From Oasisia sp. SBJ-2009 (lineage: Eukaryota; Annelida; Polychaeta; Sabellida; Siboglinidae): a stretch of 64,000 nt of DNA. The stretch is taken from assembly GCA_964017155.1 (NCBI GenBank), contig OZ024861.1, forward strand, positions 53,334,309 to 53,398,308. Direction: 5' to 3'. Within the stretch, counting starts at the first letter, position 1. Each line of letters begins with the position of its first letter. Under the pieces are notes generated by a model. The model had not been told where the DNA came from and searched no databases. It saw nothing but the letters and a program-made list of their open reading frames with translations. A program made the translations under genes and the position numbers. Below, in pieces: positions 6,189-46,800 of the stretch.

Positions 6189-6696
6189 TTGAGGTCGAAA
6201 AGACAGCGCGAATTGTGCCAGTCGCAAGCGAAGAGGTGCATGTTACTGCGCTGTGCATATGAAATGAGCGATAAACAGTTTGTTTATGCCGACCACGCTG
6301 TCTTTTCGACCTCAAAAGTCTGCTAAGACGCGCTGTATATAAAACATTAATATGCGCAAGATGAATATAATTGATTGAATTAACAAAATCAAGTATGAAA
6401 TGTTGGCAAAAATACAGTTATAATACCAAAATTGAGGTGGGCCCGACTTGTACATAAGTGCCAACACTTGCGGACGCGTACCTTCACGCGCACTCTCTCA
6501 TAAATAAAATCACGTATACTCTCAATTTGTTTTCAGTATTTCACTATTTGGCACTTATGTACAAGTCGGAAACACCTCAATGTTGCTATTATATCAGTAT
6601 TTTTGCCAACATTTGATACTTGATTAAATTAATTCATTCAATTATAATCATCTTGCGCGTATATATGTTTTATAAACAGCGCGTCTTGGCAAACTT
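6189..6696 (+). repeat. Recombinant L unit, beta 5' part and alpha 3' part
   Basis: This is the reciprocal type of hybrid. Beta marks (AAGACAGCGCGAATTG, GCGAAGAGG, ACATTAATATGCG) run to about 6362. From ATGAATATAATTG onward the marks are alpha (GGACGCGTACC, ATAAATAAAATCACG), and the unit is 508 bp. A second beta-to-alpha hybrid is at 20841-21348, with the switch earlier, near GGCGACCGCGCTGTC at about 20940. Confidence 0.75.
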
Positions 6697-25331: not shown

Positions 25332-26927
25332 TTGAGGTCGAAAAGACAGCGCGAATTGTGCCAGTCGCAAGCGCAGAGGTGCATGTTACTGCGCTGTGCA
25401 TATGAAATGAGCGATAAACAGTTTGTTTATGCCGACCACGTATACTCTCAATTTGTTTTCAGTATTTCACTATTTGGCACTTATGTACAAGTCGGACCCA
25501 CATCAATGTTGCTATTATATCAGTATTTTTGCCAACATTTGATACTTGATTAAATTAATTCATTCAATTATAATCATCTTGCGCGTATTTATGTTTCATA
25601 AACAGCGCGTCTTGGCAATCTTTTGAGGTCGAAAGTACAGCACGATTTGTGCCAGTCGCAAGCGCAGCGGTGCATGTTACTGCGCTGAGCATATGAAATG
25701 AGCGATAAACAGTTTGTTTATGCCGACCGCGCTGTCTTTTCGACCTCAAAAGTCTGCTAAGACGCGCTGTATATAAAACATAAATATGCGCAAGATGAAT
25801 ATAATTGATTGAATTAACAAAATCAAGTATCAAATGTTGGCAAAAATACAGTTATAATACCAAAATTGAGGTGGGCCCGACTTGTACATAAGTGCCAACA
25901 CTTGCGGACGCGTACCTTCACGCGCACTCTCTCATAAATAAAATCACGTATACTCTCAATTTGTTTTCAGTATTTCGCTATTTGGCACTTATGTACAAGT
26001 CGGACCCACCTCAATGTTGTATTATATAAGTATTTTTGCCAACATTTGATACTTGATTAAATTAATTCATTCAATTATAATCATCTTGCGCGTATATATG
26101 TTTTATAAACAGCGCGTCTTGGCAAACTTTTGAGGTCGAAAAGACAGCGCGAATTGTGCCAGTCGCAAGCGCAGAGGTGCGTGTTACTGCGCTGTGCATA
26201 TGAAATGAGCGATAAACAGTTTGTTTATGCCGACCACGTATACTCTCAATTTGTTTTCAGTATTTCACTATTTGGCACTGATGTACAAGTCGGACCCACA
26301 TCAATGTTGCTATTATATCAGTATTTTTGCCAACATTTGATACTTGATTAAATTAATTCATTCAATTATAATCATCTTGCGCGTATTTATGTTTCATAAA
26401 CAGCGCGTCTTGGCAATCTTTTGAGGTCGAAAGTACAGCACGATTTGTGCCAGTCGCAAGCGCAGCGGTGCATGTTACTGCGCTGAGCATATGAAATGAG
26501 CGATAAACAGTTTGTTTATGCCGACCGCGCTGTCTTTTCGACCTCAAAAGTCTGCTAAGACGCGCTGTATATAAAACATAAATATGCGCAAGATGAATAT
26601 AATTGATTGAATTAACAAAATCAAGTATCAAATGTTGGCAAAAATACAGTTATAATACCAAAATTGAGGTGGGCCCGACTTGTACATAAGTGCCAACACT
26701 TGCGGACGCGTACCTTCACGCGCACTCTCTCATAAATAAAATCACGTATACTCTCAATTTGTTTTCAGTATTTCGCTATTTGGCACTTATGTACAAGTCG
26801 GACCCACCTCAATGTTGTATTATATAAGTATTTTTGCCAACATTTGATACTTGATTAAATTAATTCATTCAATTATAATCATCTTGCGCGTATATATGTT
26901 TTATAAACAGCGCGTCTTGGCAAACTT

Positions 26928-27137
26928 TTGAGGTCGAAAAGACAGCGCGAATTGTGCCAGTCGCAAGCGCAGAGGTGCGTGTTACTGCGCTGTGCATATG
27001 AAATGAGCGATAAACAGTTTGTTTATGCCGACCACGTATACTCTCAATTTGTTTTCAGTATTTCACTATTTGGCACTGATGTACAAGACGGACCCACCTC
27101 AATGTTGCTATTATATCAGTATTTTTGCCAACATTTG
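26928..27137 (+). repeat. Truncated S unit at A-to-B junction
   Basis: The last S unit of the left array stops after TGCCAACATTTG and continues as satellite B (CCGTTTTTCTCGATTC). The four bases TTTG at 27134-27137 belong to both families (A: CAACATTTGATAC; B: AACTTTGCCG), a microhomology junction. The last 51 bp of A here (27087-27137) are the same stretch with which A resumes at 43851-43901, with one difference. Confidence 0.9.
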
Positions 27138-27568
27138 CCGTTTTTCTCGATTCTTAGAACTGATCCCCCGCAGACGGATATGACAGTCGTTTTCCTCGAT
27201 TTTCCGAAAGTTGGCCAAATGACGCGCACGGCCATTGCGTTTCCTCGAGAGGGTCGTAGTTACTCCTCGTGCGCGACACACGCCCGAGAAGACCGACCGG
27301 CGCGTCGAACTTTGCCGTTTTTCTCGATTCGCAGAACTGATCCCCCGTAGACGGATAGGACTTAGTCGTTTTTCTCGATTTGTTTCCAAAAGTTGGCAAA
27401 ACGACGCGCACGGCCATTGGGCTTCCTCGGGAGAGTCGTAGTTACTCCCCATGCGCGACACACGCCCGAGAAGACCGACCGGCGCGTCGAACTTTGCCGT
27501 TTTTCTCGATTCGCAGAACTGATCCCCCGTAGACGGATAGGACTTAGTCGTTTTTCTCGATTTGTTTC

Positions 27569-27591
27569 CAAAAGTTGGCAAAACGACGCGC
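27569..27591 (+). repeat. Motif shared by satellites A and B
   Basis: Satellite B module Y has AAAAGTTGGCAAAACGACGC followed by GC, and module X has AAAGTTGGCCAAATGACGCG. Satellite A, on the minus strand of every unit (for example 86-106), has AAAAGTTTGCCAAGACGCGC. The similarity is confined to this ~20-bp box. Otherwise I see no relationship between A and B. It may be a shared protein-binding site, common ancestry of a small piece, or coincidence. Confidence 0.45.
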
Positions 27592-28118
27592 CCGGTCGGT
27601 CATTCGTCTACATGCACAAGTGATCTCTACCGTCGTCGAGTCCGTCTTTCCCGTCTCTCTCCCTCCGCCGGCCCGGGCCGGGCCGCGCCGGGCCGCGCCG
27701 GGCAGTTAACGGCGCCCGGCCGGGCTTCGGAACGCGACCGGTGGCAAGGCTTCGGCGCACACGAGCGGGCCGGGCTTTGCAGGCGACCACCGGCCGGGCT
27801 TCGAAACGCGACCAGGCTTCGGCGCACACGACCGGGCCAGATTTCGCCACGCCGCTTGCTCAACTGATCCCCCGTAGACGGATCGGACTTTGTCGTCCTT
27901 TTCCTCGATTTCTCCAACTATCACCCTGTTAATGTCGCCAAATGCCTCGTCACCTCATCTAGCTAGTGTTTCGTTATTACTCCCGCCATTTACCCGCCGG
28001 TCGGCACGGAATTCTGTTGAAAAGAATGTATACAGACATTTACGCTTCCCCAACTGATCCCCCGTAGACGGATCGGACTTTGACGTCGTTTTCCTCGATT
28101 TCTCCAACTATCACCCTG

Positions 28119-28187
28119 TTAAGGTCGCCAAATGCCTCGTCACCTCATCTAGTTAGTGGTTCCTTATTACTCCCGCCGTTTACCCGC
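28119..28187 (+). pseudogene. 28S rRNA gene fragment around the R2/I-PpoI site (Z module)
   Basis: Positions 28119-28158 read TTAAGGTCGCCAAATGCCTC then GTCACCTCATCTAGTTAGTG. The conserved eukaryotic 28S sequence is TTAAGGTAGCCAAATGCCTC then GTCATCTAATTAGTG, so there are two substitutions and one 5-base insertion. Positions 28167-28185 are the exact complement of GGGTAAACGGCGGGAGTAA, which in 28S lies about 12 bases upstream of TTAAGG. The module thus holds both flanks of the R2 cleavage site, the upstream flank being inverted and placed downstream. The 28S reference is from general knowledge of this highly conserved large-subunit domain IV segment. The fragment is far too short and rearranged to be a functional rRNA. 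Confidence 0.88.
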
Positions 28188-28306
28188 CGGTCGGTACGGA
28201 ATTCTGTTGAAAAGAATGTAGACAGACATTTACGCTTCCCAGACTGATCCCCCGTAGACGGATGGGACTTTGTCGTTTTTCTCAGTTTTTCCGATGTATC
28301 ACCCTG

Positions 28307-28382
28307 TTAAGGTCGCCAAATGCCTCGCTCGTGGTCTAATGATTTTATATTAGAGGTTCCTTATTACTCCCGCCGTTTACCC
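28307..28382 (+). pseudogene. 28S R2-site fragment, second variant (Z3 module)
   Basis: The core is the same TTAAGGTCGCCAAATGCCTC, and the inverted upstream flank at 28364-28382 is the same. Between them the 28S stretch TCATCTAATTAGTG is interrupted differently: CTCGTGGTCTAATGATTTTA then TATTAGAGG here, or TATTAGTGG in other copies. CTAAT and ATTAG form a 5-bp stem around the added bases. Z3 also differs by the GGCACGGCACGGCACGGAAC direct repeat and a GTTTAAACAGAAATTCTCG tail. Confidence 0.8.
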
Positions 28383-28522
28383 ACCGGTCGGCACGGCACG
28401 GCACGGAACTTTGTTGAAACAGGTTTAAACAGAAATTCTCGTTTCCCCAACTGATCCCCCGTAGACGGATCGGACTTTGTCGTTTTCCTCGATTTTCCGA
28501 AAGTTGGCAAAATGACGCGCAC

Positions 28523-28560
28523 GGCCATTGGGCTTCCTCGGGAGAGTCGTAGTTACTCCC
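28523..28560 (-). pseudogene. 28S R2-site fragment in X module
   Basis: Read on the minus strand, this gives GGGAGTAACTACGACTCTC, then CCGAGGAAGCCCAATGGCC. The 28S sequence is GGGAGTAACTATGACTCTC, then TTAAGGTAGCCAAATGCC. The first 19 bases differ once; the following part matches at most but not all positions. Other X copies have CTCTCTCGAGGAAACGCAATG. Unlike Z, the X copy keeps the upstream flank and the site contiguous and unrearranged, so it appears to be an independently derived or older copy. Confidence 0.75.
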
Positions 28561-28810
28561 CGTGCGCGACACACGCCCGAGAAGACCGACCGGCGCGTCG
28601 AACTTTGCCGTTTTTCTCGATTCGTAGAACTGATCCCCCGCAGACGGATATGACTTAGTCGTTTTCCTCGATTTTCCGAAAGTTGGCCAAATGACGCGCA
28701 CGGCCATTGCGTTTCCTCGAGAGGGTCGTAGTTACTCCTCGTGCGCGACACACGCCCGAGAAGACCGACCGGCGCGTCGAACTTTGCCGTTTTTCTCGAT
28801 TCGCAGAACT

Positions 28811-29156
28811 GATCCCCCGTAGACGGATAGGACTTAGTCGTTTTTCTCGATTTGTTTCCAAAAGTTGGCAAAACGACGCGCCCGGTCGGTCATTCGTCTA
28901 CATGCACAAGTGATCTCTACCGTCGTCGAGTCCGTCTTTCCCGTCTCTCTCCCTCCGCCGGCCCGGGCCGGGCCGCGCCGGGCCGCGCCGGGCAGTTAAC
29001 GGCGCCCGGCCGGGCTTCGGAACGCGACCGGCGGCAAGGCTTCGGCGCACACGAGCGGGCCGGGCTTCGGCACGCGACCGCCGGCCGGGCTACGGAACGC
29101 GACCAGGCTTCGGAGCATACGACCTGGCCAGGTTTCGGCACGCCGCTTCCTCAACT
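28811..29156 (+). repeat. Satellite B module Y (GC-rich), representative
   Basis: Y starts with the common head, then AAAAGTTGGCAAAACGACGC and GCCCGGTCGGTCATTCG. Next come a pyrimidine-rich stretch (CTTTCCCGTCTCTCTCCCTC), a 10-bp tandem tract of CCGGGCCGCG, and an internal roughly 80-bp duplication containing GGGCTTCGGAACGCGACC and GGCTTCGGCGCACACGA. Full copies are at 27521-27865, 28811-29156, 30117-30472, 32494-32849, 33795-34140, 35102-35447, 42260-42653 and 43212-43634. A fused copy ends at 31533 and a truncated one at 36315. Length varies with the number of CCGGGCCGCG copies. It resembles the GC-rich subrepeats of rDNA spacers in style, but I cannot confirm homology. Confidence 0.85.
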
Positions 29157-29758
29157 GATCCCCCGTAGACGGATCGGACTTTGTGGTCGTTTTCCTCGAT
29201 TTCTCCAACTATCACCCTGTTAAGGTCGCCAAATGCCTCGTCACCTCATCTAGCTAGTGGTTCCTTATTACTCCCGCCGTTTACCCACCGGTCGGCACGG
29301 AATTATGTTGAAAAGAATGTAGACAGACATTTACGCTTCCCCAACTGATCCCCGTAGACGGATGGGACTTTGTCGTTTTTCTCAGTTTTTCCGACGTATC
29401 ACCCTGTTAAGGTCGCCAAATGCCTCGCTCGTCGTCTAATGATTTTATATTAGTGGTTCCTTATTACTCCCGCCGTTTACCCACCGGTCGGCACGGCACG
29501 GCACGGAACTTTGTTGAAACAGGTTTAAACAGAAATTCTCGTTTCCCCAACTGATCCCCGTAGACGGATGGGACTTTGTCGTTTTTCTCAGTTGTTCCGA
29601 CGTATCACCCTGTTAAGGTCGCCAAATGCCTCGCTCGTCGTCTAATGATTTTATATTAGTGGTTCCTTATTACTCCCGCCGTTTACCCACCGGTCGGCAC
29701 GGCACGGCACGGAACTTTGTTGAAACAGGTTTAAACAGAAATTCTCGTTTCCCCAACT

Positions 29759-31059
29759 GATCCCCCGTAGACGGATCGGACTTTGTCGTTTTCCTCGATT
29801 TTCCGAAAGTTGGCAAAATGACGCGCACGGCCATTGGGCTTCCTTGGGAGAGTCGTAGTTACTCCCCGTGCGCGACACACGCCCGAGAAGACCGACCGGC
29901 GCGTCGAACTTTGCCGTTTTTCTCGATTCGCAGAACTGATCCACCGCAGACGGATATGACTTAGTCGTTTTCCTCGATTTTCCGAAAGTTGGCCATATGA
30001 CGCGCACGGCCATTGTGTTTCCTCGAGAGGGTCGTAGTTACTCCCCGTGCGCGACACACGCCCGAGAAGACCGACCAGCGCGTCGAACTTTGCCGTTTTT
30101 CTCGATTCGCAGAACTGATCCCCCGTAGACGGATAGGACTTAGTCGTTTTTCTCGATTTGTTTCCAAAAGTTGGCAAAACGACGCGCCCGGTCGGTCATT
30201 CGTCTACATGCACAAGTGATCTCTACCGTCGTCGAGTCCGTCTTTCCCGTCTCTCTCCCTCCGCCGGCCCGGGCCGGGCCGCGCCGGGCCGCGCCGGGCC
30301 GCGCCGGGCAGTTAACGGCGCCCGGCCGGGCTTCGGAACGCGACCGGCGGCAAGGCTTCGGCGAACACGAGCGGGCCGGGCTTCGGCAGGCGACCGCCGG
30401 CCGGGCTTCGGAACGCGACCAGGCTTCGGCGCACACGACCGGGCCAGATTTCGCCACGCCGCTTGCTCAACTGATCCCCCGTAGACGGATCGGACTTTGT
30501 CGTCCTTTTCCTCGATTTCTCCAACTATCACCCTGTTAAGGTCGCCAAATGCCTCGTCACCTCATCTAGCTAGTGTTTCGTTATTACTCCCGCCATTTAC
30601 CCGCCGGTCGGCACGGAATTCTGTTGAAAAGAATGTATACAGACATTTACGCTTCCCCAACTGATCCCCCGTAGACGGATCGGACTTTGACGTCGTTTTC
30701 CTCGATTTCTCCAACTATCACCCTGTTAAGGTCGCCAAATGCCTCGTCACCTCATCTAGTTAGTGGTTCCTTATTACTCCCGCCGTTTACCCGCCGGTCG
30801 GTACGGAATTCTGTTGAAAAGAATGTAGACAGACATTTACGCTTCCCAGACTGATCCCCCGTAGACGGATGGGACTTTGTCGTTTTTCTCAGTTTTTCCG
30901 ATGTATCACCCTGTTAAGGTCGCCAAATGCCTCGCTCGTGGTCTAATGATTTTATATTAGAGGTTCCTTATTACTCCCGCCGTTTACCCACCGGTCGGCA
31001 CGGCACGGCACGGAACTTTGTTGAAACAGGTTTAAACAGAAATTCTCGTTTCCCCAACT
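29759..31059 (+). repeat. Satellite B unit 3
   Basis: X 29759-29937, X 29938-30116, Y 30117-30472 (one extra CCGGGCCGCG copy), Z 30473-30662, Z 30663-30852, Z3 30853-31059. Nearly identical in module order and private changes to unit 5. Confidence 0.9.
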
Positions 31060-32135
31060 GATCCCCCGTAGACGGATCGGACTTTGTCGTTTTCCTCGAT
31101 TTTCCGAAAGTTGGCCAAATGACGCGCACGGCCATTGGGCTTCCTCGAGAGAGTCGTAGTTACTCCCCGTGCGCGACACACGCCCGAGAAGACCGACCGG
31201 CGCGTCGAACTTTGCCGTTTTTCTCGATTTGTTTCCAAAAGTTGGCAAAACGACGCGCCCGGTCGGTCATTCGTCTACATGCACAAGTGATCTCTACCGT
31301 CGTCGAGTCCGTCTTTCCCGTCTCTCTCCCTCCGCCGGCCCGGGCCGGGCCGCGCCGGGCCGCGCCGGGCAGTTAACGGCGCCCGGCCGGGCTTCGGAAC
31401 GCGACCGGCGGCAAGGCTTCGGCGCACACGAGCGGGCCGGGCTTCGGCACGCGACCGCCGGCCGGGCTTGGGAACGCGACCAGGCTTCGGCGCATACGAC
31501 CTGGCCAGGTTTCGGCACGCCGCTTGCTCAACTGATCCCCCGTAGACGGATCGGACTTTGTGGTCGTTTTCCTCGATTTCTCCAACTATCACCCTGTTAA
31601 GGTCGCCAAATGCCTCGTCACCTCATCTAGCTAGTGGTTCCTTATTACTCCCGCCGTTTACCCACCGGTCGGCACGGAATTCTGTTCAAAAGAATGTAGA
31701 CAGACATTTACGCTTCCCCAACTGATCCCCGTAGACGGATGGGACTTTGTCGTTTTTCTCAGTTTTTCCGACGTATCACCCTGTTAAGGTCGCCAAATGC
31801 CTCGCTCGTCGTCTAATGATTTTATATTAGTGGTTCCTTATTACTCCCGCCGTTTACCCACCGGTCGGCACGGCACGGCACGGAACTTTGTTGAAACAGG
31901 TTTAAACAGAAATTCTCGTTTCCCCAACTGATCCCCGTAGACGGATGGGACTTTGTCGTTTTTCTCAGTTGTTCCGACGTATCACCCTGTTAAGGTCGCC
32001 AAATGCCTCGCTCGTCGTCTAATGATTTTATATTAGTGGTTCCTTATTACTCCCGCCGATTACCCACCGGTCGGCACGGCACGGCACGGAACTTTGTTGA
32101 AACAGGTTTAAACAGAAATTCTCGTTTCCCCAACT
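31060..32135 (+). repeat. Satellite B unit 4, with X-Y fusion
   Basis: One X and Y are fused at 31060-31533: the X tail TTTGCCGTTTTTCTCGATT runs straight into the Y segment TGTTTCCAAAAGTTGG at about 31230. Z 31534-31723, Z3 31724-31929 and Z3 31930-32135 follow. The unit is about 230 bp shorter than its neighbours. TTTTTCTCGATT occurs both in the X tail and in the Y head, so recombination between these copies removes exactly the missing X and Y head. Confidence 0.88.
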
Positions 32136-33436
32136 GATCCCCCGTAGACGGATCGGACTTTGTCGTTTTCCTCGATTTTCCGAAAGTTGGCAAAATGACG
32201 CGCACGGCCATTGGGCTTCCTTGGGAGAGTCGTAGTTACTCCCCGTGCGCGACACACGCCCGAGAAGACCGACCGGCGCGTCGAACTTTGCCGTTTTTCT
32301 CGATTCGCAGAACTGATCCACCGCAGACGGATATGACTTAGTGGTTTTCCTCGATTTTCCGAAAGTTGGCCATATGACGCGCACGGCCATTGTGTTTCCT
32401 CGAGAGGGTCGTAGTTACTCCCCGTGCGCGACACACGCCCGAGAAGACCGACCAGCGCGTCGAACTTTGCCGTTTTTCTCGATTGGCAGAACTGATCCCC
32501 CGTAGACGGATAGGACTTAGTCGTTTTTCTCGATTTGTTTCCAAAAGTTGGCAAAACGACGCGCCCGGTCGGTCATTCGTCTACATGCACAAGTGATCTC
32601 TACCGTCGTCGAGTCCGTCTTTCCCGTCTCTCTCCCTCCGCCGGCCCGGGCCGGGCCGCGCCGGGCCGCGCCGGGCCGCGCCGGGCAGTTAACGGCGCCC
32701 GGCCGGGCTTCGGAACGCTACCGGCGGCAAGGCTTCGGCGCACACGAGCGGGCCGGGCTTCGGCAGGCGACCGCCGGCCGGGCTTCGGAACGCGACCAGG
32801 CTTCGGCGCACACGACCGGGCCAGATTTCGCCACGCCGCTTGCTCAACTGATCCCCCGTAGACGGATCGGACTTTGTCGTCCTTTTCCTCGATTTCTCCA
32901 ACTATCACCCTGTTAAGGTCGCCAAATGCCTCGTCACCTCATCTAGCTAGTGTTTCGTTATTACTCCCGCCATTTACCCGCCGGTCGGCACGGAATTCTG
33001 TTGAAAAGAATGTATACAGATATTTACGCTTCCCCAACTGATCCCCCGTAGACGGATCGGACTTTGACGTCGTTTTCCTCGATTTCTCCAACTATCACCC
33101 TGTTAAGGTCGCCAAATGCCTCGTCACCTCATCTAGTTAGTGGTTCCTTATTACTCCCGCCGTTTACCCGCCGGTCGGTACGGAATTCTGTTGAAAAGAG
33201 TGTAGACAGACATTTACGCTTCCCAGACTGATCCCCCGTAGACGGATGGGACTTTGTCGTTTTTCTCAGTTTTTCCGATGTATCACCCTGTTAAGGTCGC
33301 CAAATGCCTCGCTCGTGGTCTAATGATTTTATATTAGTGGTTCCTTATTACTCCCGCCGTTTACCCACCGGTCGGCACGGCACGGCACGGAACTTTGTTG
33401 AAACAGGTTTAAACAGAAATTCTCGTTTCCCCAACT
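32136..33436 (+). repeat. Satellite B unit 5
   Basis: X 32136-32314, X 32315-32493, Y 32494-32849, Z 32850-33039, Z 33040-33229, Z3 33230-33436. Module order matches units 1, 3 and 7. Confidence 0.9.
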
Positions 33437-34743
33437 GATCCCCCGTAGACGGATCGGACTTTGTCGTTTTCCTCGATTTTCCGAAAGTTGGCAAAATGAC
33501 GCGCACGGCCATTGGGCTTCCTCGGGAGAGTCGTAGTTACTCCCCGTGCGCGACACACGCCCGAGAAGACCGACCGACGCGTCGAACTTTGCCGTTTTTC
33601 TCGATTCGTAGAACTGATCCCCCGCAGACGGATATGACTTAGTCGTTTTCCTCGATTTTCCGAAAGTTGGCCAAATGACGCGCACGGCCATTGCGTTTCC
33701 TCGAGAGGGTCGTAGTTACTCCTCGTGCGCGACACACGCCCGAGAAGACCGACCGGCGCGTCGAACTTTGCCGTTTTTCTCGATTCGCAGAACTGATCCC
33801 CCGTAGACGGATAGGACTTAGTCGTTTTTCTCGATTTGTTTCCAAAAGTTGGCAAAACGACGCGCCCGGTCGGTCATTCGTCTACATGCACAAGTGATCT
33901 CTACCGTCGTCGAGTCCGTCTTTCCCGTCTCTCTCCCTCCGCCGGCCCGGGCCGGGCCGCGCCGGGCCGCGCCGGGCAGTTAACGGCGCCCGGCCGGGCT
34001 TCGGAACGCGACCGGCGGCAAGGCTTCGGCGCACACGAGCGGGCCGGGCTTCGGCACGCGACCGCCGGCCGGGCTACGGAACGCGACCAGGCTTCGGCGC
34101 ATACGACCTGGCCAGGTTTCGGCACGCCGCTTGCTCAACTGATCCCCCGTAGACGGATCGGACTTTGTGGTCGTTTTCCTCGATTTCTCCAACTATCACC
34201 CTGTTAAGGTCGCCAAATGCCTCGTCACCTCATCTAGCTAGTGGTTCCTTATTACTCCCGCCGTTTACCCACCGGTCGGCACGGAATTCTGTTCAAAAGA
34301 ATGTAGACAGACATTTACGCTTCCCCAACTGATCCCCGTAGTCGGATGGGACTTTGTCTTTTTTTCTCAGTTTTTCCGACGTATCACCCTGTTAAGGTCG
34401 CCAAATGCCTCGCTCGTCGTCTAATGATAATATATTAGTGGTTCCTTATTACTCCCGCCGTTTACCCACCGGTCGGCACGGCACGGCACGGAACTTTGTT
34501 GAAACAGGTTTAAACAGAAATTTTCGTTTCCCCAACTGATCCCCGTAGACGGATGGGACTATGTCGTTTTTCTCAGTTTTTCCGACGTATCACCCTGTTA
34601 AGGTCGCCAAATGCCTCGCTCGTCGTCTAATGATTTTATATTAGTGGTTCCTTATTACTCCCGCCGTTTACCCACCGGTCGGCACGGCACGGCACGGAAC
34701 TTTGTTGAAACAGGTTTAAACAGAAATTCTCGTTTCCCCAACT
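33437..34743 (+). repeat. Satellite B unit 6
   Basis: X 33437-33615, X 33616-33794, Y 33795-34140, Z 34141-34330, Z3 34331-34537, Z3 34538-34743. Module order matches units 2 and 4. One Z3 has AATGATAATATATTAGTG in place of AATGATTTTATATTAGTG. Confidence 0.9.
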
Positions 34744-36034
34744 GATCCCCCGTAGACGGATCGGACTTTGTCGTTTTCCTCGATTTTCCGAAAGTTGGCA
34801 AAATGACGCGCACGGCCATTGGGCTTCCTTGGGAGAGTCGTAGTTACTCCCCGTGCGCGACACACGCCCGAGAAGACCGACCGGCGCGTCGAACTTTGCC
34901 GTTTTTCTCGATTCGCAGAACTGATCCACCGCAGACGGATATGACTTAGTGGTTTTCCTCGATTTTCCGAAAGTTGGCCATATGACGCGCACGGCCATTG
35001 TGTTTCCTCGAGAGGGTCGTAGTTACTCCCCGTGCGCGACACACGCCCGAGAAGACCGACCAGCGCGTCGAACTTTGCCGTTTTTCTCGATTCGCAGAAC
35101 TGATCCCCCGTAGACGGATAGGACTTAGTCGTTTTTCTCGATTTGTTTCCAAAAGTTGGCAAAACGACGCGCCCGGTCGGTCATTCGTCTACATGCACAA
35201 GTGATCTCTACCGTCGTCGAGTCCGTCTTTCCCGTCTCTCTCCCTCCGCCGGCCCGGGCCGGGCCGCGCCGGGCCGCGCCGGGCAGTTAACGGCGCCCGG
35301 CCGTGCTTCGGAACGCGACCGGCGGCAAGGCTTCGGCGCACACGAGCGGGCCGGGCTTCGGCAGGCGACCGCCGGCCGGGCTTCGGAACGCGACCAGGCT
35401 TCGGCGCACACGACCGGGCCAGATTTCGCCACGCCGCTTGCTCAACTGATCCCCCGTAGACGGATCGGACTTTGTCGTCCTTTTCCTCGATTTCTCCAAC
35501 TATCACCCTGTTAAGGTCGCCAAATGCCTCGTCACCTCATCTAGCTAGTGTTTCCTTATTACTCCCGCCATTTACCCACCGGTCGGCACGGAATTCTGTT
35601 GAAAAGAATTTATACAGACATTTACGCTTCCCCAACTGATCCCCCGTAGACGGATCGGACTTTGTCGTCGTTTTCCTCGATTTCTCCAACTACCACCCTG
35701 TTAAGGTCGCCAAATGCCACGTCACCTCATCTAGTTAGTGGTTCCTTATTACTCCCGCCGTTTACCCGCCGGTCGGTACGGAATTCTGTTGAAAAGAATG
35801 TAGACAGACATTTACGCTTCCCAGACTGATCCCCCGTAGACGGATGGGACTTTGTCGTTTTTCTCAGTTTTTCCGATGTATCACCCTGTTTAGGTCGCCA
35901 AATGCCTCGCTCGTGGTCTACTGATTTTATATTAGTGGTTCCTTATTACTCCCGCCGTTTACCCACCGGTCGGCACGGCACGGCACGGAACTTTGTTGAA
36001 ACAGGTTTAAACAGAAATTCTCGTTTCCCCAACT
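34744..36034 (+). repeat. Satellite B unit 7
   Basis: X 34744-34922, X 34923-35101, Y 35102-35447, Z 35448-35637, Z 35638-35827, Z3 35828-36034. This is the last complete unit before the rearranged part of the block. Confidence 0.9.
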
Positions 36035-36315
36035 GATCCCCGTAGACGGATCGGACTTTGTCGTCGTTTTCCTCGATTTCTCCAACTACCACCCTGTTAA
36101 GGTCGCCAAATGCCTCGTCACCTCATCTAGTTAGTGGTTCCTTATTACTCCCGCCGTTTACCCGCCGGTCGGTACGGAATTCTGTTGAAAATAATTTTTT
36201 TTTTCTCGATTTGTTTCCAAAAGTTGGCAAAACGACGCGCCCGGTCGGTCATTCGTCTACATGCACAAGTGATCTCTTCCGTCGTCGAGTCCGTCTTTCC
36301 CGTCTCTCTCCCTCT
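36035..36315 (+). repeat. Broken satellite B unit 8: Z fused to partial Y
   Basis: A Z module (from 36035) breaks off within GAATTCTGTTGAAAATAAT. It joins a run of ten T (36195-36204) that leads into the Y segment TCTCGATTTGTTTCCAAAAG. Y then stops at the pyrimidine-rich CCCGTCTCTCTCCCTC near 36315, before its GC-rich part. Immediately afterwards the array is in the opposite orientation. Confidence 0.85.
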
Positions 36316-37897
36316 CCTGCAATGGCCGCAATGGCCTGCGCCTCATTTGGCCAACATTCGGAAAATCGAGGAAAACGACTAAGTCCGATCCGTCTGCGGG
36401 GGATCAGTTCTGCGAATCGAGAAAAACGGCAAAGTTCGACGCGCCGGTCGGTCTTCTCGGGCGTGTGTCGCGCACGGGGAGTAACTACGACTCTCCCGAG
36501 GAAGCCCAATGGCCGTGCGCGTCATTTTGCCAATTTTCGGAAAATCGAGGAAAACGACAAAGTCCGATCCTTCTATAGGGGATCAGTTGGGGAAACGAGA
36601 ATTTCTGTTTAAACCTGTTTCAACAAAGTTCCGTGCCGTGCCGTGCCGACCGGTGGGTAAACGGCGGGAGTAATAAGGAACCACTAATATAAAATCATTA
36701 AACGACGAGCGAGGCATTTGGCGACCTTAACAGGGTGATAGTCGGAAAAACTGAGAAAAACGACAAAGTCCCATCCGTCTACGGGGGATCAGTTGGGGAA
36801 GGGTAAATGTCTGTCTACATTCTTTTCAACATAATTCCGTAACGACCGGCGGGTAAACGGCGGGAGTAATAAGGAACCACTAACTAGATGAGGTGACGAG
36901 GCATTTGGCGACCTTAACAGGTTGATAGTTGGAGAAATCGAGGAAAACGACGACAACGTCCCATCCGTCTACGGCGGATCAGTTGGGGAAACGAGAATTT
37001 CTGTTTAAACCAGTTTCAACAAAGTTCCGTGCCGTGCCGACCGGTGGGTAAACGGCGGGAGTAATAAGGAACCACTAATATAAAATCATTAGACGACGAG
37101 CGAGGCATTTGGCGACTTTAACAGGGTGATAGTCGGAAAAACTGAGAAAAACGACAAAGTCCCATCCGTCTACGTGGGATCAGTTGGGGAAGCGCAAATA
37201 TCTGTCTACATTCTTTTCAACATAATTCCGTACCGATCGGCGGGTAAACGGCGGGAGTAATAAGGAACCACTAACTAGATGAGGTGACGAGGCATTTGGC
37301 GACCTTAACAGGGTGATGGTTGGAGAAATCGAGGGAAACGACGACAAAGTCCGATCCGTCTACGGGGGATCAGTTGGGGAAGCGTAAATGTCTGTCTACA
37401 TTCTTTTCAACAGAATTCCGTGCCGACCGGAGGGTAAACGGCGGGAGTAATAAGAAACCACTAGCTAGATGAGGTGACGAGGCATTTGGCGACCTTATCA
37501 AGGTGATAGTTGGAGAGATCGAGGAAAACGACGACAAAGTCCTATCCGTCTACGGGGGATCAGTTCTGCGAATCGAGAAAAACGGTAAAGTTCGACGCGC
37601 CTGTCGGTCTTCTCGGGCGTGTGTCGCGCACGGGGAGTAACTACGACTCTCTCGAGGAAATGCAATGGCCGTGCGCGTCATTTGGCCAACTTTTGGAAAA
37701 TCGAGGAAAACGACAAAGTCCGATCCGTCTACGGCGGATCAGTTCGGGAAGCGTAAATGTCTGTCTACATTCTTTTCAACAGAATTCCGTACCGACCGGC
37801 TGGTAAACGGCGGGAGTAATAAGGAACCACTAACTAGATGAGGTGACGAGGCATTTGGCGACCTTAACAGGGTGATAGTTGGAGAAATCGAGGAAAT
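36316..37897 (-). repeat. Satellite B, inverted block
   Basis: From 36316 the modules read in the minus direction, ending in CGGGGGATCAGTT on the plus strand. Plus-strand order: partial X 36316-36405, X 36406-36584, Z3 36585-36790, Z 36791-36980, Z3 36981-37181, Z 37182-37371, Z 37372-37561, X 37562-37740, truncated Z 37741-37897. No Y is present, and the X positions differ from the regular forward order. The first bases (TCCTGCAATGGCCGCAATGG) contain a small local duplication of AATGGCC at the inversion point. The block ends at the left terminus of the 4-kb TIR element. Confidence 0.92.
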
Positions 37898-37934
37898 TCC
37901 CTTACCAAAAAATACCATTCAAATACCATTGAAT
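37898..37934 (+). repeat. Left terminal inverted repeat
   Basis: TCCCTTACCAAAAAATACC followed by ATTCAAATACCATTGAAT. It pairs with 41864-41900 with mismatches only at TIR positions 9 and 14. The outermost T could be chance, in which case the element starts at CCC (37899). Confidence 0.82.
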
Positions 37935-38240
37935 GGTACTAGGGGGTATAATGGCCAATGGTATTTGAATGGTATTTGAATGGTACTTCAATGGTATTTT
38001 GGTGGTCTGCGTATATAAACAGTTGAATGGTATTTGAATGGTATTTGAATGGTCCTAGGGGGTATAATGGCCAATGGTATTTGAATGGTACTTCAATGGT
38101 ACTTTGGTGGTCTGTGTATATAAACAGTTGAATGGTATTTGAATGGTAATTGAATGGTCCTAGTGGGTATAATGGCCAATGGTATTTGAATGGTACTTCA
38201 ATGGTACTTTGGTGGTCTCTGTATATAAACAGTTGAATGG
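37935..38240 (+). repeat. Left subterminal tandem repeat, ~105-116 bp x 3
   Basis: GGGTATAATGGCC recurs at about 37944, 38060 and 38165. Each is followed by AATGGTATTTGAATGGTAC, TTCAATGGTA, TTTTGGTGGTCTG and GTATATAAACAGTTGAATGG. The 116 versus 105 spacing comes from one extra TATTTGAATGG copy. GTATATAAACAG resembles a TATA box but recurs in each copy; I do not call it a promoter. Confidence 0.8.
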
Positions 38241-38523
38241 TATTTGAATGGTACTAGGAATACTGTTCAGTGGTATCTGAATGGTACTTGACTGAATGGT
38301 ATTCTGAATGGTCCAATGGTATTCTGAATGGTACTTATAAGAAACGTTTCAGCTTCTTCGTCAATGGTATTCTGAATGGTATACCATGCAGAATATCATT
38401 GACGAAGAAGCTGAAGAGCTTCTTATAAGTACCATTCAGAATATAACTGGACCATTCAGAATACCATTCAGTCAAGTACCATTCAGATACCACTGCACAT
38501 TATTCCTAGTAACATTCAAAATA
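38240..38523. repeat. Near-perfect palindrome, ~140-bp arms, no spacer
   Basis: The centre is ATGGTATACCAT (38376-38387). Reading outward, both arms contain TCAATGGTATTCTGAATGG or its complement, CAGCTTCTTCGTC, GTACTTATAAGAA, GGTACTTGACTGAATGGTA, TCAGTGGTATCTGAATGG and TACTAGGAAT, with only scattered mismatches. There is essentially no loop. Such a structure extrudes readily as a cruciform and is normally unstable in cloning or long-read assembly. Confidence 0.88.
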
Positions 38524-38775
38524 CCATTGACAAATACCATTCAAAGGATAAACTAATTAATATATTCCCAGCTTCACAGAGATCATATGCACATATAGAT
38601 CAAACTGAAAACATGGTCAAGATAAATTAACAATGTTTTAATACGTTAAGTCTGCTGCTCTCGAACGTACATAATTATATACATGCACATCAAATCTGAA
38701 ATATCATAAAATATTATGTCCGTCGATCAATCTTCACATTTGTCTTGATTTGTGTTCACTTTGGACAGCTTTGTC

Positions 38776-38893
38776 CTACGCGTCCATGGTAACCTCAAAG
38801 CCTTTCTTCTGGTCTTCGCCCAGAAGTGGGTATACTTCTCGAATATATTCTGGGAGAAAAGATTTATCAATCACTAGCTCGAATGAAATGTTT
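38776..38893 (-). pseudogene. Possible terminal exon of unknown protein
   Basis: Read on the minus strand, a frame of about 38 codons runs from just after an ACAG (38894-38897, possible splice acceptor, though preceded by A-rich rather than pyrimidine-rich sequence) to a TAG at 38776-38778. It contains FLPEYIREVYPLLGEDQKK and ends near GFEVTMDA. The mixed, charged composition and locally higher GC than the surroundings look protein-like. There is an in-frame TAA just upstream of the acceptor, so without splicing it would be a very short frame. I do not recognise a family. A chance frame remains possible. Confidence 0.3.
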
Positions 38894-39140
38894 CTGTTTT
38901 TTTAAACATTGTACAATTAATGCAGCTATGAAGTGGTTTTCCATGAAATTATATTATACATGTTATGATAATTATATAATACAAATACAATAATGGAACT
39001 TGGTTTCATATTTGTTATGGCCACAATTCACTTCTAGCTAGATATTTTTCTTTATAAAATCTTCATACAATTGCAAAAGTACATTAATTATAAATTGATT
39101 GAGCCATAATAATAAAGCAAAGAAGTAAAAATAATAATAA

Positions 39141-39193
39141 AAGCACACTATGTTTTTCAATCTATGTTAACCAAAATATGTTATAGTGTGCTT
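39141..39193. repeat. Small hairpin in TIR-element interior
   Basis: AAGCACACTA (39141-39150) pairs perfectly with TAGTGTGCTT (39184-39193) across a 33-base AT-rich spacer. It might be the ends of a tiny decayed insertion or a chance hairpin. Confidence 0.5.
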
Positions 39194-39440
39194 GGAATAT
39201 ATTATAAAATATTAGCAGTTTTTGGATATATATAACAAATACATATATTTTGTTATTTGATTAATCAGGCATTGACAGTAATTTTAAAGAAAAAGTGTTA
39301 CTAGCATACAGTCAAATTTAATTTAACTTATTTAGAAAAACACATTTAGAAGGTAAACAAGTATGCAATTTTTTCAAGATATACAATCACGGTTTCGTTA
39401 ATTCGTTTTCAAACAATCCCTCACAGATTAAACAGTTATG

Positions 39441-39746
39441 CCGTCGAGTCAATGTAAACAAGCCGATGTCCACACCACAGGGCCAGGCGCATATCAAGAC
39501 CGCAAAGGCGATGTCTTGCGATTTATGAATAAATCCCCAAAACTAAGGCCACATCATTAATAGTTATTCTGTATCACGCAGATTTATTGTTTAAATTTTA
39601 AATGTATATAATGTTGCTAATTGTTTCTATTTCGACTTCGCAATGCACACGCAAGACGTCGCCTTTGCGGCTCTGATGCATCTGGGATACGTTAACTGCT
39701 GTTAGTGAATGACATCGCCACGGCTTGTTTACGTCGACTCGATACG
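39441..39746. repeat. Nested imperfect inverted repeat
   Basis: The left arm (39441-39521) has GTCGAGTCAATGTAAACAAGC near its outer end and ACCGCAAAGGCGATGTCTTG near its inner end. The right arm (about 39645-39746), read on the minus strand, has ATCGAGTCGACGTAAACAAG and GCCGCAAAGGCGACGTCTTG in the same order. The spacing differs by about 20 bases. The arms are GC-richer than the surroundings. This may be a small fold-back insertion nested in the larger element, or an inverted duplication of a captured fragment. Confidence 0.7.
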
Positions 39747-39865
39747 ACTTACCTCAACACAATTTAACAAATAATATCTTACTTCTTTGTACCGGAAATG
39801 ATATAGAATGACATTCCGAATACATACACATTGAAAACAGGTGATAAAACGTTTAGAAAAGGCCG

Positions 39866-40018
39866 TCATAATTTAGGCCAGTTAACTGGAAGATTACCGA
39901 GCTTTCCGTCAGTTGCCGAATCCAAGTCGACGTCGAAAGTGGTCACTTATTCAATATTGACAATCTGTGTCGTGTTGTCATCCTCAAAATTTACACAGGC
40001 ATAACACTGTACCTCCAT
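39866..40018 (-). pseudogene. Coding-like segment with an internal stop
   Basis: On the minus strand an ATG at 40016-40018 opens MEVQCYACVNFEDDNTTQ and continues to a TAA at 39947-39949. The same frame resumes at once and includes DSATDGKLGNLPVNWPKL before a TGA at 39866-39868. The composition (acidic, few repeats) and balanced GC resemble real protein more than the flanking AT-rich DNA. TATAAAT lies 30 bases upstream of the ATG. It is on the same strand as, and upstream of, the possible terminal exon at 38776-38893, so both could be remnants of one gene carried or captured by the element. No family is recognised. Confidence 0.33.
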
Positions 40019-40354
40019 TCTGCATCGATGGCGATTTGAGATGTAGATTTATAAGATGTTTATCGTCCAAATTATGTGATCGACGGAACATTGCGAACAC
40101 AAGTTCATTTTATACAGATTCAAATATCCCACGATGAGGCCCGCAGAAATCAGCTGTCGTATTCTGATTGGTTTATTATTTGTAGACTTAAATACGATTA
40201 CACATTCAATAAGATAGGGTAATCAGTTATAATAGAAAATAAAAAATAACAATAATGTATCCCAATTGAAAATGAAGAATACATAAAATATATAACTATG
40301 TAACAACAATTGATTAATCAAGTGAGCTGCTGCGAACACGAAGTCATGTGTGGT

Positions 40355-41863
40355 TCAATGGTATCGAATGGTATTCTTAAATACCATTGGGAGTACCATT
40401 GAAGCCTGATTATATCATTGAACGGTCCAATGGTATTGAATGGTACTTTTATATACCATTGAGCGTACCGCTAAAAATGCTTTAACACTGGATGGTCCAA
40501 TGGTACATACTGAGTGATATTCTCAAATACCGTTGAGAATACTACTAAAGTCTGATTTATTATTGAACAGTATGGTATTGATAGAATCATTGAAACAAGA
40601 TTTTATTATTGAATAATCCAATATATATATATGGAACTGAATGGTATTCTAAAATACCATTGGAAATACCACTGAAGTCACATTTATTGTTGCACAGTAT
40701 GTTCAAATACCATTGAGAGAACAACTGAAACAAGATGTTATCATTGAATGATCTGATTTATTATTGAAAGGAATGTTCCAATACCGTTTCGAGTACCATT
40801 GATGCCTTATTTTATCATTGAATGGTCCAATGGTACTGAATGGTATTGAATGGTATTACAAATTACCGCTGAGAATACCATTGAGTCCTACTGAAATACC
40901 ATTGAATGGTCCAACGGTACTGAATGGTATTCAATGGTATACTATTGGCTCTTTTTTTGTCAGGGCCATTGGTAGCAATATTGTAATGGTATATTTTGTA
41001 ACATGTCAAAATTAGTCTATGACACTTGAGAATACCACTGATATATATTACTTTAAAAGTTATATTCAGATACCATTGATTTATCTTGATTTATCATTGA
41101 TCTGCACGGTCCAGTGGTACTGAATGGTATATTCAAATATTATTACTTGAGATTACCACTGAGACATCAATATACATTTTACCTTTAAATATTAATTGTA
41201 TGTACCACCGAAACAATATGTATCGTACATGATTACATTTCAAATACCACTGAAACAAGATGTTATCATTGAATGGTCCAATGGTATTCCCAAATACCAT
41301 TGAGAAAACCACTGAAGTCTGATTTATTGTTGAAAAGTATGTTCAGATACCATTGGTAGTACCATTGAAACATGATTTATCATTGAGTAGTCCAATGGTA
41401 TTGAACGGTATTCTAAAGTACCATTGAGAATACCACTGAAGTCTGATTTATTGTTGAAAAGTATGTTCCGATACCATTGAGAGTACCATTGAAACAAGTT
41501 TTATCATTGAGTAGTCCAATTGTATTCAATGGTATTCTGAAATACCATTGAGAATACCACTGAAGTCTGATTTATTGTTGGAAAGTATGTTCCGATACCA
41601 TTGACAGTACCACTGAAACAAGCTTTATCATTGAGTAGTCCAATGGTATTCAATGGTATTCTGAAATACCATTGAGAATACCACTGAGAATAATATATAC
41701 CACTGGATTGTCCAATGGTCCTGAATGGTATTACGAATTACCATTCACAGTACCATTGAGTCCAACAGAAATACCATTGAATAGCCCAAAGTACCATTGA
41801 GCCTACTGAAATACCATTGAATGGTCCAATGGTACTGAATGGTATTCAAAGGTATTCAATGGT
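40355..41863. repeat. Right subterminal repeat array of TIR element
   Basis: This is about 1.5 kb dominated by AATGGTATT, AATACCATT and degenerate forms, interspersed with TTTATCATTGAATGGTCC and CTGAAGTCTGATTTATTG phrases. It is over twice as long as the left subterminal region, so the element is asymmetric. A frame at 40818-41015 is composed of these repeats and is not a gene. Confidence 0.82.
41311..41682 (+). repeat. Three direct repeats of exactly 124 bp
   Basis: ACTGAAGTCTGATTTATTGT begins at 41311, 41435 and 41559, and ACTGAGAATAATAT at 41683 marks the end of the third copy. Each copy contains AAGTATGTTC, GATACCATTG, TTTATCATTGAGTAGTCC (TTTATCATTGAATGG-like in older copies) and TTCTGAAATACCATTGAGAA. 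High identity and constant length indicate recent tandem triplication within the subterminal region. Confidence 0.85.
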
Positions 41864-41900
41864 ATTCAATGGTATTTGAATGGTATATTTTTGTAAGGGA
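41864..41900 (-). repeat. Right terminal inverted repeat
   Basis: On the minus strand it reads TCCCTTACAAAAATATACC followed by ATTCAAATACCATTGAAT. The sequence beyond it is satellite B starting within the GATCCCC head. Confidence 0.82.
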
Positions 41901-43850
41901 TCCCCTGTAGACGGATCGGACTTTGTCGTTTTCCTCGATTTTCCGAAAGTTGGCCAAATGACGCGCACGGCCATTGCTTTTCCTCGAGAGAGTCGTAGTT
42001 ACTCCTCGTGCGCGACACACGCCCGAGAAGACCGATCGGCGCGTCGAACTTTGCCGTTTTTCTCGATTCTCAAAACTGATCCCCCGTAGACGGATAAGAC
42101 TTAGTCGTTTTTCTCGATTTGTTCCCAAACGTTGGCCAAATGACGCGCACGACCATTGCGTTTCCTCGAGAGAGTCGTAGTTACTCCACGTGCGCGACAC
42201 ACGCCCGAGAAGACCGACCGGGGAGTCGAACTTTGCCGTTTTTCTCGATTCGCAGAACTGATCCCCCGTAGACGGATAGGACTTAGTCGTTTTTCTCGAT
42301 TTGTTTCCAAAAGTTGGCAAAACGACGCGCCCGGTCGGTCATTCGTCTACATGCACAAGTGATCTCTACCGTCGTCGAGTCCGTCTTTCCAGTCTCTCTC
42401 CCTCCGCTGGCCCGGGCCGGGCCCGGCCTGACCGCACCTCGCCGTGCGGCCGGGCCGGGCCGGGCCGCGCCGGGCCGGGCCGCGCCGATAGGTTACCGGC
42501 GCCCGGCCGGGCTTCGGAACGAGACCGGCGGGAAGGCTTCGGCGCACACGACCGGGCCGGGCTTCGGCATGCGACCGGCGGCCGGGCTTCGGAACGCGAC
42601 CAGGCTTCGGCGCACACGACCGGGCCAGGTTTCGGCACGCCGCTTGCTCAACTGATCCCCCGTAGACGGATCGGACTTTGTCGTCGTTTTCCTCGATTTC
42701 TCCAACTATCACCCTGTTAAGGTCGCCAAATGCCTCGTCACCTCATCTAGCTAGTGGTTCCTTATTACTCCCGCCGTTTACCCACCGGTCGGCATGGCAC
42801 GGCACGGAACTTTGTTGAAACAGGTTTAAACATAAATTCTCGTTTCCCCAACTGATCCCCCGTAGACGGATCGGACTTTGTCGTTTTCCTCGATTTTCCG
42901 AAACTTGGCGAAATGACGCGCACGGCCATTGCGTTTCCTCGAGAGAGTCGTAGTTACTCCCAGTGCGCGACACACGCCCGAGAAGACCGATCGGGGCGTC
43001 GAACTTTGCCGTTTTTCTCGATTCTCAAAACTGATCCCCCGTAGAGGGATAGGACTTAGTCGTTTTCCTCGATTTTCCGAAAGTTGGCCAAATGACGCGC
43101 ACGGCCATTGCGTTTCCTCGAGAGAGTCGCAGTTACTCCACGTGCGCGACACACGCCCGAGAAGACCGACCGGCACGTCGAACTTTGCCGTTTTTCTAGA
43201 TTCGCAGAACTGATCCCCCGTAGACGGATAGGACTTAGTCGTTTTTCTCGATTTGTTTCCAAAAGTTGGCAAAACGACACGCCCGGTTGGTCATTCGTCT
43301 ACATGCACAAGTGATCTCTACCGTCGTCGAGTCCGTCTTTCCAGTCTCTCTCCCTCCGCTGGCCCGGGCCGGGCCCGGCCTGACCGCGCCGGGCCGCGCC
43401 GGGCCGGACCGCATCTCGCCGTGCGGCCGGGCCGGCCGCGCCGGGCCGCGCCGGGCCGGGCCGCGCCGGGCAGTTACCGGCGCCCGGCCGGGCTTCGGAA
43501 CGCGACCGGCGGGAAGGCTTCGGCGCACACGACCGGGCCGGGCTTCGGCATGCGACCGGCGGCCGGGCTTCGGAACGCTACCAGGCTTCGGCGCACACGA
43601 CCGGGCCAGGTTTTGGCACGCCGCTTGCTCAACTGATCCCCCGTAGACGGATCGGACTTTGTCGTCGTTTTCCTCGATTTCTCCAACTATCACCCTGTTA
43701 AGGTCGCCAAATGCCTCGTCACCTCATTTAGCTAGTGGTTCCTTATTACTCCCGCCATTTACCCACCGGTCGGCACGGAATTATGTTGAAAAGAATGTAG
43801 ATAGACATTTACGCTTCCCCAACTGATCCCCCGTAGACGAATCGGACTTT
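41901..43850 (+). repeat. Satellite B, right forward block
   Basis: X 41901-42077 (head truncated at the TIR element), X 42078-42259, Y 42260-42653, Z 42654-42853, X 42854-43032, X 43033-43211, Y 43212-43634, Z 43635-43824, head only 43825-43850. Each unit has a single Z instead of three, giving an approximately 0.8-0.95-kb period. The first Z is a hybrid: type-1 CACCTCATCTAGCTAGTGG core with a Z3-type GGCACGGAACTTTGTTG tail. Both Y copies have expanded GC tracts. The last head passes into satellite A at GTCG (43851-43854). Confidence 0.92.
43365..43475 (+). repeat. Expanded CCGGGCCGCG-type GC tract in Y
   Basis: Nearly pure G+C tandem repeats of CCGGGCCGCG and CGGGCCGGGC, interrupted by CCTGACCGCGC and CGCATCTCGCCGTGCGG. 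The matching tract in the other right-block Y is 42410-42490; in the left block the tract is only about 30-45 bp (for example 27671-27702). Copy-number change here accounts for Y length differences. The tract is likely to form strong secondary structure. Confidence 0.85.
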
Positions 43851-46800
43851 GTCGGACCCACCTCAATGTTGCTATTATATCAGTATTTTTGCCAACATTT
43901 GATACTTGATTAAATTAATTCATTCAATTATAATCATCTTGCGCGTATTTATGTTTTATAAACAGCGCGTCTTGGCAAACTTTTGAGGTCGAAAAGACAG
44001 CGCGATTTGTGCCAGTGGCAAGCGCAGCGGTGCATGTTATTGCGCTGAGCATATGAAATGAGCGATAAACAGTTTGTTTATGCCGACCGCGCTGTCTTTT
44101 CGACCTCAAAAGTCTGCTAAGACGTGCTGTATATAAAACATTAATATGCGCAAGATGATTATAATTGATTAAATTAACAAAATCAAGTATCAAATGTTGG
44201 CAAATATATAGTTATAATACCAAAATTGAGGTGGGCCCGACTTGTACATGAATGTCTACACTTGCGGGCGCGTACCTTCACGCGCACTCTCTCATAAAAG
44301 CACGTATACTCTCAATTTGTTTTCAGTATTTCACTATTTGGCACTGATGTACAAGTCGGACCCACCTCAATGTTGCTATTATATCAGTATTTTTGCCAAC
44401 ATTTGATACTTGATTAAATTAATTCTTTCAATTATAATCATCTTGCGCGTATTTATGTTTTATAAACAGCGCGTCTTGGCAAACTTTTGAGGTCGAAAAG
44501 ACAGCGCGATTTGTGCTAGTCGCAAGCGCAGCGGTGCATGTTACTGCGCTGAGCATATGAAATGAGCGATGAACAGTTTGTTTATGCCGACCACGCTGTC
44601 TTTTCGACCTCAAAAGTCTGCTAAGACGCGCTGTATATAAAACATAAATATGCGCAAGATGATTATAATTGATAGAATTAACAAAATCAAGTATCAAATG
44701 TTGGCAAAGATACAATTATAATACCAACATTGAGGTGGGCCGACTTGTTCTTCAATGCGTACACTTGCGGGCGCGTACCTTCACGCGCACTCTCTGATAA
44801 AAGCACGTATACTCTCAATTTGTTTTCAGTATTTCACTATTTGGCACTTACGTACAAGTCGGACCCACCTCAATGTTGCTATTATATCAGTATTTTTGCC
44901 AACATTTGATACTTGATTAAATTAATTCATTCAATTATAATCATCCTGCGCGTATTTATGTTTTATAAACAGCGCGTCTTGGCAAACTTTTGAGGTCGAA
45001 AAGACAGCGCGATTTGTGCCAGTCGCAAGCGCAGCGGTGCATGTTATTGCGCTGAGCATATGAGATGAGCGATAAACAGTTTGTTTATGCCGACCGCGCT
45101 GTCTTTTCGACCTCAAAAGTCTGCTAAGACGCGCTCTATATAAAACACAAATATGCGCAAGATGATTATAATTGATAGAATTAACAAAATCAAATATCAA
45201 ATGTTGGCAAAGGTACAGTTATAATACCAAAATTGAGGTGGGCCCGACTTGTATATAAGTGCCAACACTTGCGGGCGCGTACCTTCACGCGCACTCTCTC
45301 ATAAAAGCACGTATACTCTCAATTGTTTTCAGTATTTCACTATTTGGCACTTATGTACAAGTCGGACCCACCTCAATGTTGCTATTGTATCACTATTTTT
45401 GCTAACATTTGATACTTGATTAAATTAATTCATTCAATTATAATCATCTTGCGCGTATTTATGTTTGATAAACAGCGCGTCTTGGCAAACTTTTGAGGTC
45501 GACAAGTCAGCGCGATTTGTGCCAGTAGCAAGCGCAGCGGTGCATGTTACTGCGCTGTGCATATGAATTGAGCGATAAACAGTTTGTTTATGCCGACAAC
45601 GCTGTCTTTTCGACCTCAAAAGTCTGCTAAGACGTGCTGTATATAAAACATTAATATGCGCAAGATGATTATAATTGATTAAATTAACAAAATCAAGTAT
45701 CAAATGTTGGCAAATATATAGTTATAATACCAAAATTGAGGTGGGCCCGACTTGTACATAAATGCCTACACTTGCGGGCGCGCAACTTCACGCGCACTCT
45801 CTCATAAAAGCACGTATACTCTCAATTTGTTTTCAGTATTTCACTATTTGGCACTTATGTACAAGTCGGACCCACCTCAATGTTGCTATTATATCAGTAT
45901 TTTTGCCAACATTTGATACTTGATTAAATTAATTCATTCAATTATAATCATCTTGCGCGTATTTGTGTTGTATAAACAGCGCGTCTTGGCAAACTTTTGA
46001 GGTCGAAAAGACAGCGCGAATTGTGCCAGTCGCAAGCGCAGAGGTGCATGTTACTGCGCTGTGCATATGAAAAGAGCGATAAACAGTTTGTTTATGCCGA
46101 CAACGCTGTCTTTTCGACCTCAAAAGTCTGCTAAGACGTGCTGTGTATAAAACATTAATATGCGCAAGATGATTATAATTGATTAAATTAACAAAATCAA
46201 GTATCAACTGTTGGCAAATATATAGTTATAATACCAAAATTGAGGTGGGCCCGACTTGTACATGAATGTCTACACTTGCGGGCGCGTACCTTCACGCGCA
46301 CTCTCTCATAAAAGCACGTATACTCTCAATTTGTTTTCAGTATTTCACTATTTGGCACTGATGTACAAGTCGGACCCACCTCAATGTTGCTATTATATCA
46401 GTATTTTTGCCAACTTTTGATACTTGATTAAATTAATTCTTTCAATTATAATCATCTTGCGCGTATTTATGTTTTATAAACAGCGCGTCTTGGCAAACTT
46501 TTGAGGTCGAAAAGACAGCGCGATTTGTGCTAGTCGCAAGCGCAGCGGTGCATGTTACTGCGCTGAGCATATGAAATGAGCGATGAACAGTTTGTTTATG
46601 CCGACCACGCTGTCTTTTCGACCTCAAAAGTCTGCTAAGACGCGCTGTATATAAAACATAAATATGCGCAAGATGATTATAATTGATAGAATTAACAAAA
46701 TCAAGTATCAAATGTTGGCAAAGATACAATTATAATACCAACATTGAGGTGGGCCGACTTGTTCTTCAATGCGTACACTTGCGGGCGCGTACCTTCACGC

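What the first reader, a model, noticed from the sequence alone, without database searches (positions are those of the whole stretch)
27866..43824. A satellite built from the 28S rDNA R2/I-PpoI target site, with the two flanks rearranged head-to-tail
About thirty Z modules contain TTAAGGTCGCCAAATGCCTC plus a TTAGTG end, nearly the exact downstream flank of the R2 cleavage site. This is followed by the exact complement of GGGTAAACGGCGGGAGTAA, the upstream flank. Homology to the downstream flank starts at TTAAGG, within a few bases of the cleavage point used by R2 retrotransposons and the I-PpoI homing endonuclease. A breakpoint at that point suggests the fragment arose through cleavage or repair at the site, or by a target-specific element leaving rDNA with both flanks. 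The array could also act as a sink for such enzymes. The match is direct; the mechanism is inference.
Basis: partly seen in the sequence, partly recalled or inferred. Interest (0 to 1): 0.87.

Follow-up and report, generated by a model that had tools for sequence, protein, structure and literature searches.

The report
Satellite DNA containing folded-back 28S fragments
This repeat array carries 49 altered, partly inverted copies of one short stretch of the large ribosomal RNA gene around the spot cut by R2 jumping elements, but the ribosomal sequence runs unbroken through that spot, so the array is likely a by-product of DNA repair and repeat amplification rather than of R2 cutting.

The parts
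27134..37897 (.). [not shown]
   Evidence: module segmentation by backbone hits; tandem repeats; sequence read
41897..43854 (+). [not shown]
28054..28243 (+). [not shown]
28106..28158 (+). [not shown]
   Evidence: alignments; substitution table
28159..28166 (+). Z spacer GTTCCTTA; its CCTTA may be a minus-strand remnant (-1 to -5)
   Evidence: weak test
28167..28187 (-). [not shown]
   Evidence: motif definition from PMC10499050 passages
28451..28629 (+). representative Y module (19 Y cores in the window)
28507..28521 (+). Y plus-strand 28S remnant: in the consensus GCCAAATG joined to TGACGCGCA (+3..+10 and +28..+36, helix 71 missing); this copy reads GCAAAATGACGCGCA
   Evidence: two-block test on the consensus and listing of 19 copies
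28524..28560 (-). Y minus-strand 28S block, about -25 to +12, across the R2 nick
28809..29154 (+). representative X module: shares the backbone and the Y left part, then a G+C-rich spacer without detectable 28S
37898..41900 (.). 4-kb insert with 37-nt terminal inverted repeats (95%), no ORF of 120 aa or more wholly inside; it separates minus-oriented from plus-oriented modules

Best explanation
The array is a composite satellite whose Z modules hold the two halves of one 28S stretch (helices 68-71) in opposite orientation and whose Y modules hold the same stretch, likely two eroded forms of a single folded-back 28S fragment that was captured by a pre-existing repeat and amplified by unequal exchange. 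Shown: 28S identity, opposite orientation of the two Z blocks, homology running through the R2 nick in Z and Y, the higher-order repeat order, a shared backbone. Inferred: one ancestral fold-back (plus arm to at least +36, then a minus arm back to about -38); loss of helix 71 from the Y plus arm between two TG dinucleotides; loss of 12 nt (-17 to -6) from the Z minus arm; template switching or hairpin-primed repair as the cause; capture by an older repeat; passive spread with no function for R2.
Confidence: 0.6

Rival explanations
1. R2-linked origin: nicking or target-primed reverse transcription at the 28S site produced a broken end that was repaired by fold-back, and later mutation blurred the junction.
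For: The captured stretch lies around the R2 target. The Z spacer ends in CCTTA, the minus strand starting exactly at the nick. Lamprey Germ1 is a precedent in which a germline repeat joins truncated 28S exactly at the R2 3' junction (PMC9734144, passages). Some R2 RNAs are reported or predicted to keep 9 to 36 nt of upstream 28S (PMC3774820, abstract and passages), a range that includes the Z break at -17/-18.
Against: Homology crosses the nick in both module types. The CCTTA hint is reached by 300 of 20000 shuffles. None of the 26 ORFs of 120 aa or more looks like a reverse transcriptase (by eye); of 7 of them given to Pfam, 6 had no match and one a sub-threshold match to an unrelated domain. 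The stretch is also among the most conserved of the large rRNA (recalled), which favours its being recognised whatever the mechanism.
Confidence: 0.15
2. The array is a displaced piece of the rDNA intergenic spacer that itself contained a duplicated 28S remnant; the G+C-rich X module would be spacer sequence.
For: IGS-derived satellites are well documented (PMC12692304, passages). X is G+C-rich with short internal repeats.
Against: X shows no match above chance to the two rDNA-bearing loci (best scores 24-25; shuffle 95% point 27 against L002). Spacers evolve fast and the host rDNA was not available, so this weighs little.
Confidence: 0.2
3. The array is a sink or decoy for R2-type proteins or an I-PpoI-like homing enzyme.
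For: In the array the R2Bm upstream motif is found as 24 exact 14-mers and TTAAGGT 26 times, against 30 Z cores.
Confidence: 0.04

Closest known systems
rDNA-derived satellite DNAs (IGS- and 5S-derived satellites of plants, fish and frogs; PMC12692304, passages read)
   Same: tandem repeats built from a piece of an rRNA locus
   Different: here the piece is 28S coding sequence (helices 68-71), found in two module types and partly inverted; the examples in the passages seen are IGS- or 5S-derived
Germ1, the germline repeat of lampreys (PMC9734144, passages read)
   Same: amplified repeat that contains truncated 28S around the R2 target
   Different: in Germ1 the 28S boundary is said to be identical to the R2 3' junction; here 28S runs through the nick and is partly inverted
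R2 non-LTR retrotransposons and their 28S target (PMC10499050 and PMC3774820, passages read)
   Same: the 28S piece is the R2 target region and holds its recognition motifs
   Different: no R2 protein was recognised and no complete target site was found in the Z and Y modules; R2 ends of the host are unknown

Membership tests
rDNA-derived satellite DNA | tandem, head-to-tail repeat organisation | tested here: met
   higher-order repeat of X, Z and Y modules, (orientation is reversed between about 36.3 and 37.9 kb)
rDNA-derived satellite DNA | repeat unit homologous to a part of an rRNA locus beyond chance | tested here: met
   [not shown]
rDNA-derived satellite DNA | derivation from the host's own rDNA | not testable with these tools
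   The genome search unanswered in 13 requests
R2 insertion footprint / R2-derived repeat | 28S homology begins or ends at the R2 nick | tested here: not met
   homology crosses the nick in Z and Y; only a 5-nt hint in the Z spacer
R2 insertion footprint / R2-derived repeat | R2 sequence (protein, 3' UTR or HDV-like ribozyme) next to the 28S piece | tested here: inconclusive
   no Rfam ribozyme match at gathering threshold or up to E 10 in 26500-44000; 7 of 26 long ORFs scanned with Pfam, no reverse transcriptase; host R2 UTRs unknown
functional R2/I-PpoI target (sink) | upstream motif and cleavage motif in the right order and spacing, or an intact I-PpoI site | tested here: not met
   no such site in the Z and Y modules; native sites recovered in L001 and L002. 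The R2 rule is that of the Bombyx protein; other R2 clades may differ

The most novel reading that the evidence does not exclude
The array separates the two halves of the R2 address, the binding motif and the cutting motif, turns one round and stores them in 30 Z modules, while Y carries a cut-proof version: a chromosomal decoy that would bind R2-type proteins without being cut or invaded, kept because it protects the rDNA.
Probability: 0.03. Interest if true: 0.9.

Novelty: new variant of a known kind. Interest (0 to 1): 0.42.

Why it matters
If the fold-back reading holds, it shows a few dozen bases of 28S coding sequence, rather than spacer or 5S, being rearranged and spread as satellite DNA, with breaks in or next to the DNA forms of rRNA hairpins 69 and 71. 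It also warns that nearness to the R2 site alone does not implicate R2, because this stretch is so conserved (recalled) that it is the 28S piece most likely to be recognised. Z and Y would be ready test DNA for asking whether R2 proteins bind target halves in the wrong geometry.

Full report

Fold-back. The Y consensus just left of its minus-strand block reads GCCAAATGACGCGCACGG. This is 28S plus strand GCCAAATG (+3 to +10) and TGACGCGCA (+28 to +36) with helix 71 lost between two TG dinucleotides. A two-block score as high occurs in 38 of 20000 shuffles on the plus strand and in 15 of 5000 on either strand; among 242 windows along L002 only the two at the site reach it. Against this: the plain gapped alignment is not significant (score 11, p 0.77), I chose the test after seeing the match, and GCCAAATG is exact in 8 of 19 copies only. 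The Z spacer ends in CCTTA, which fits a minus arm (-1 to -5) with 12 nt missing; this is weak (300 of 20000 shuffles; 20 of 1232 windows). Together these suggest that both modules descend from plus-arm/minus-arm fold-backs. Hairpin-primed copying or template switching near the helix-71 palindrome is the inferred cause.

R2 and I-PpoI. R2Bm needs an upstream motif (consensus A-31 WWWGCNNNA-22) and TTNANNT at -6 to +1 at fixed spacing (one extra base tolerated); changing T+1 to A abolishes cleavage (PMC10499050, 12 of 37 passages shown). A relaxed pattern finds the native site in L002 (2612) and in L001 (1400, minus strand; L001 has 16 further matches in a repeat tract at 6247-6846, so the pattern is not specific) and no place in the Z and Y modules; the single match between 27100 and 43900 is at 39523 in the 4-kb insert. 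The array keeps 24 exact upstream 14-mers and 26 TTAAGGT, but on opposite strands within Z. Y has +1 T>A in 19 of 19. The I-PpoI 15-mer (recalled) is absent at 2 or fewer mismatches and found at 29 places with 3. The 54 strict matches of the R2Bm pattern on the plus strand of the window all lie outside 27100-43900; one chance match in a repeated unit would explain them (112 of 3000 shuffled 510-bp stretches have one).

Relatives. Translating one array ORF finds 97 database proteins, from 48 different longest-contig lengths by my count of that table. They are repeat translations: 16461 of 16577 residues align to this array at E below 1e-3. A second search added 19 more, a third none. The Z block-B peptide occurs in 23 of 116 proteins and the block-A/spacer peptide in 35 of 116; in the one frame tested none shows block A followed by sense block B in native order. 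P0093 and P0095 share a backbone-like peptide without the Z or Y peptides. Sources carry no species names, so neither the species nor the number of species is known. Seven of the 26 ORFs of 120 aa or more were scanned with Pfam: six without a match, one with a sub-threshold match (RL domain, 14.7 bits against a cut-off of 22.8).

Limits. The host genome could not be searched. No host 28S, IGS or R2 was seen, no transcription data were at hand, and the origin steps are inference.

Noticed in passing
window 1-27133 and 43855-64000: Flanking satellite of 291-bp units with longer units containing an inverted copy; 54 strict plus-strand matches to the degenerate R2Bm target pattern lie outside the 28S array, ATATGCGCAAGATGAATATAATTGATTGAATT being the commonest (24). 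112 of 3000 shuffled 510-bp stretches have a match, so chance is enough.
   Followed up: partly
window 37898-41900: 4-kb insert with 37-nt terminal inverted repeats (TCCCTTACCAAAAAATACC...), full of AATGGTATT repeats, with a palindrome of two 139-nt arms (92% complementary, no spacer) at 38243-38520; no target-site duplication seen by eye, and it sits between oppositely oriented modules.
   Followed up: partly
window 36318-36340: Orientation switch of the array with a local GCAATGGCC duplication, inside Y-like sequence: possibly another fold-back event.
   Followed up: partly
window about 27134 and 43854: Junctions with the flanking satellite show short shared words by eye (TTTGCC-like on the left, GTCGGAC-like on the right), as in microhomology joining.
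   Followed up: no
L001 312-5655 and L002 1-3101: Two prokaryote MAG records (labelled Proteobacteria and Gammaproteobacteria) contain eukaryotic rDNA, apparently contamination.
   Followed up: no
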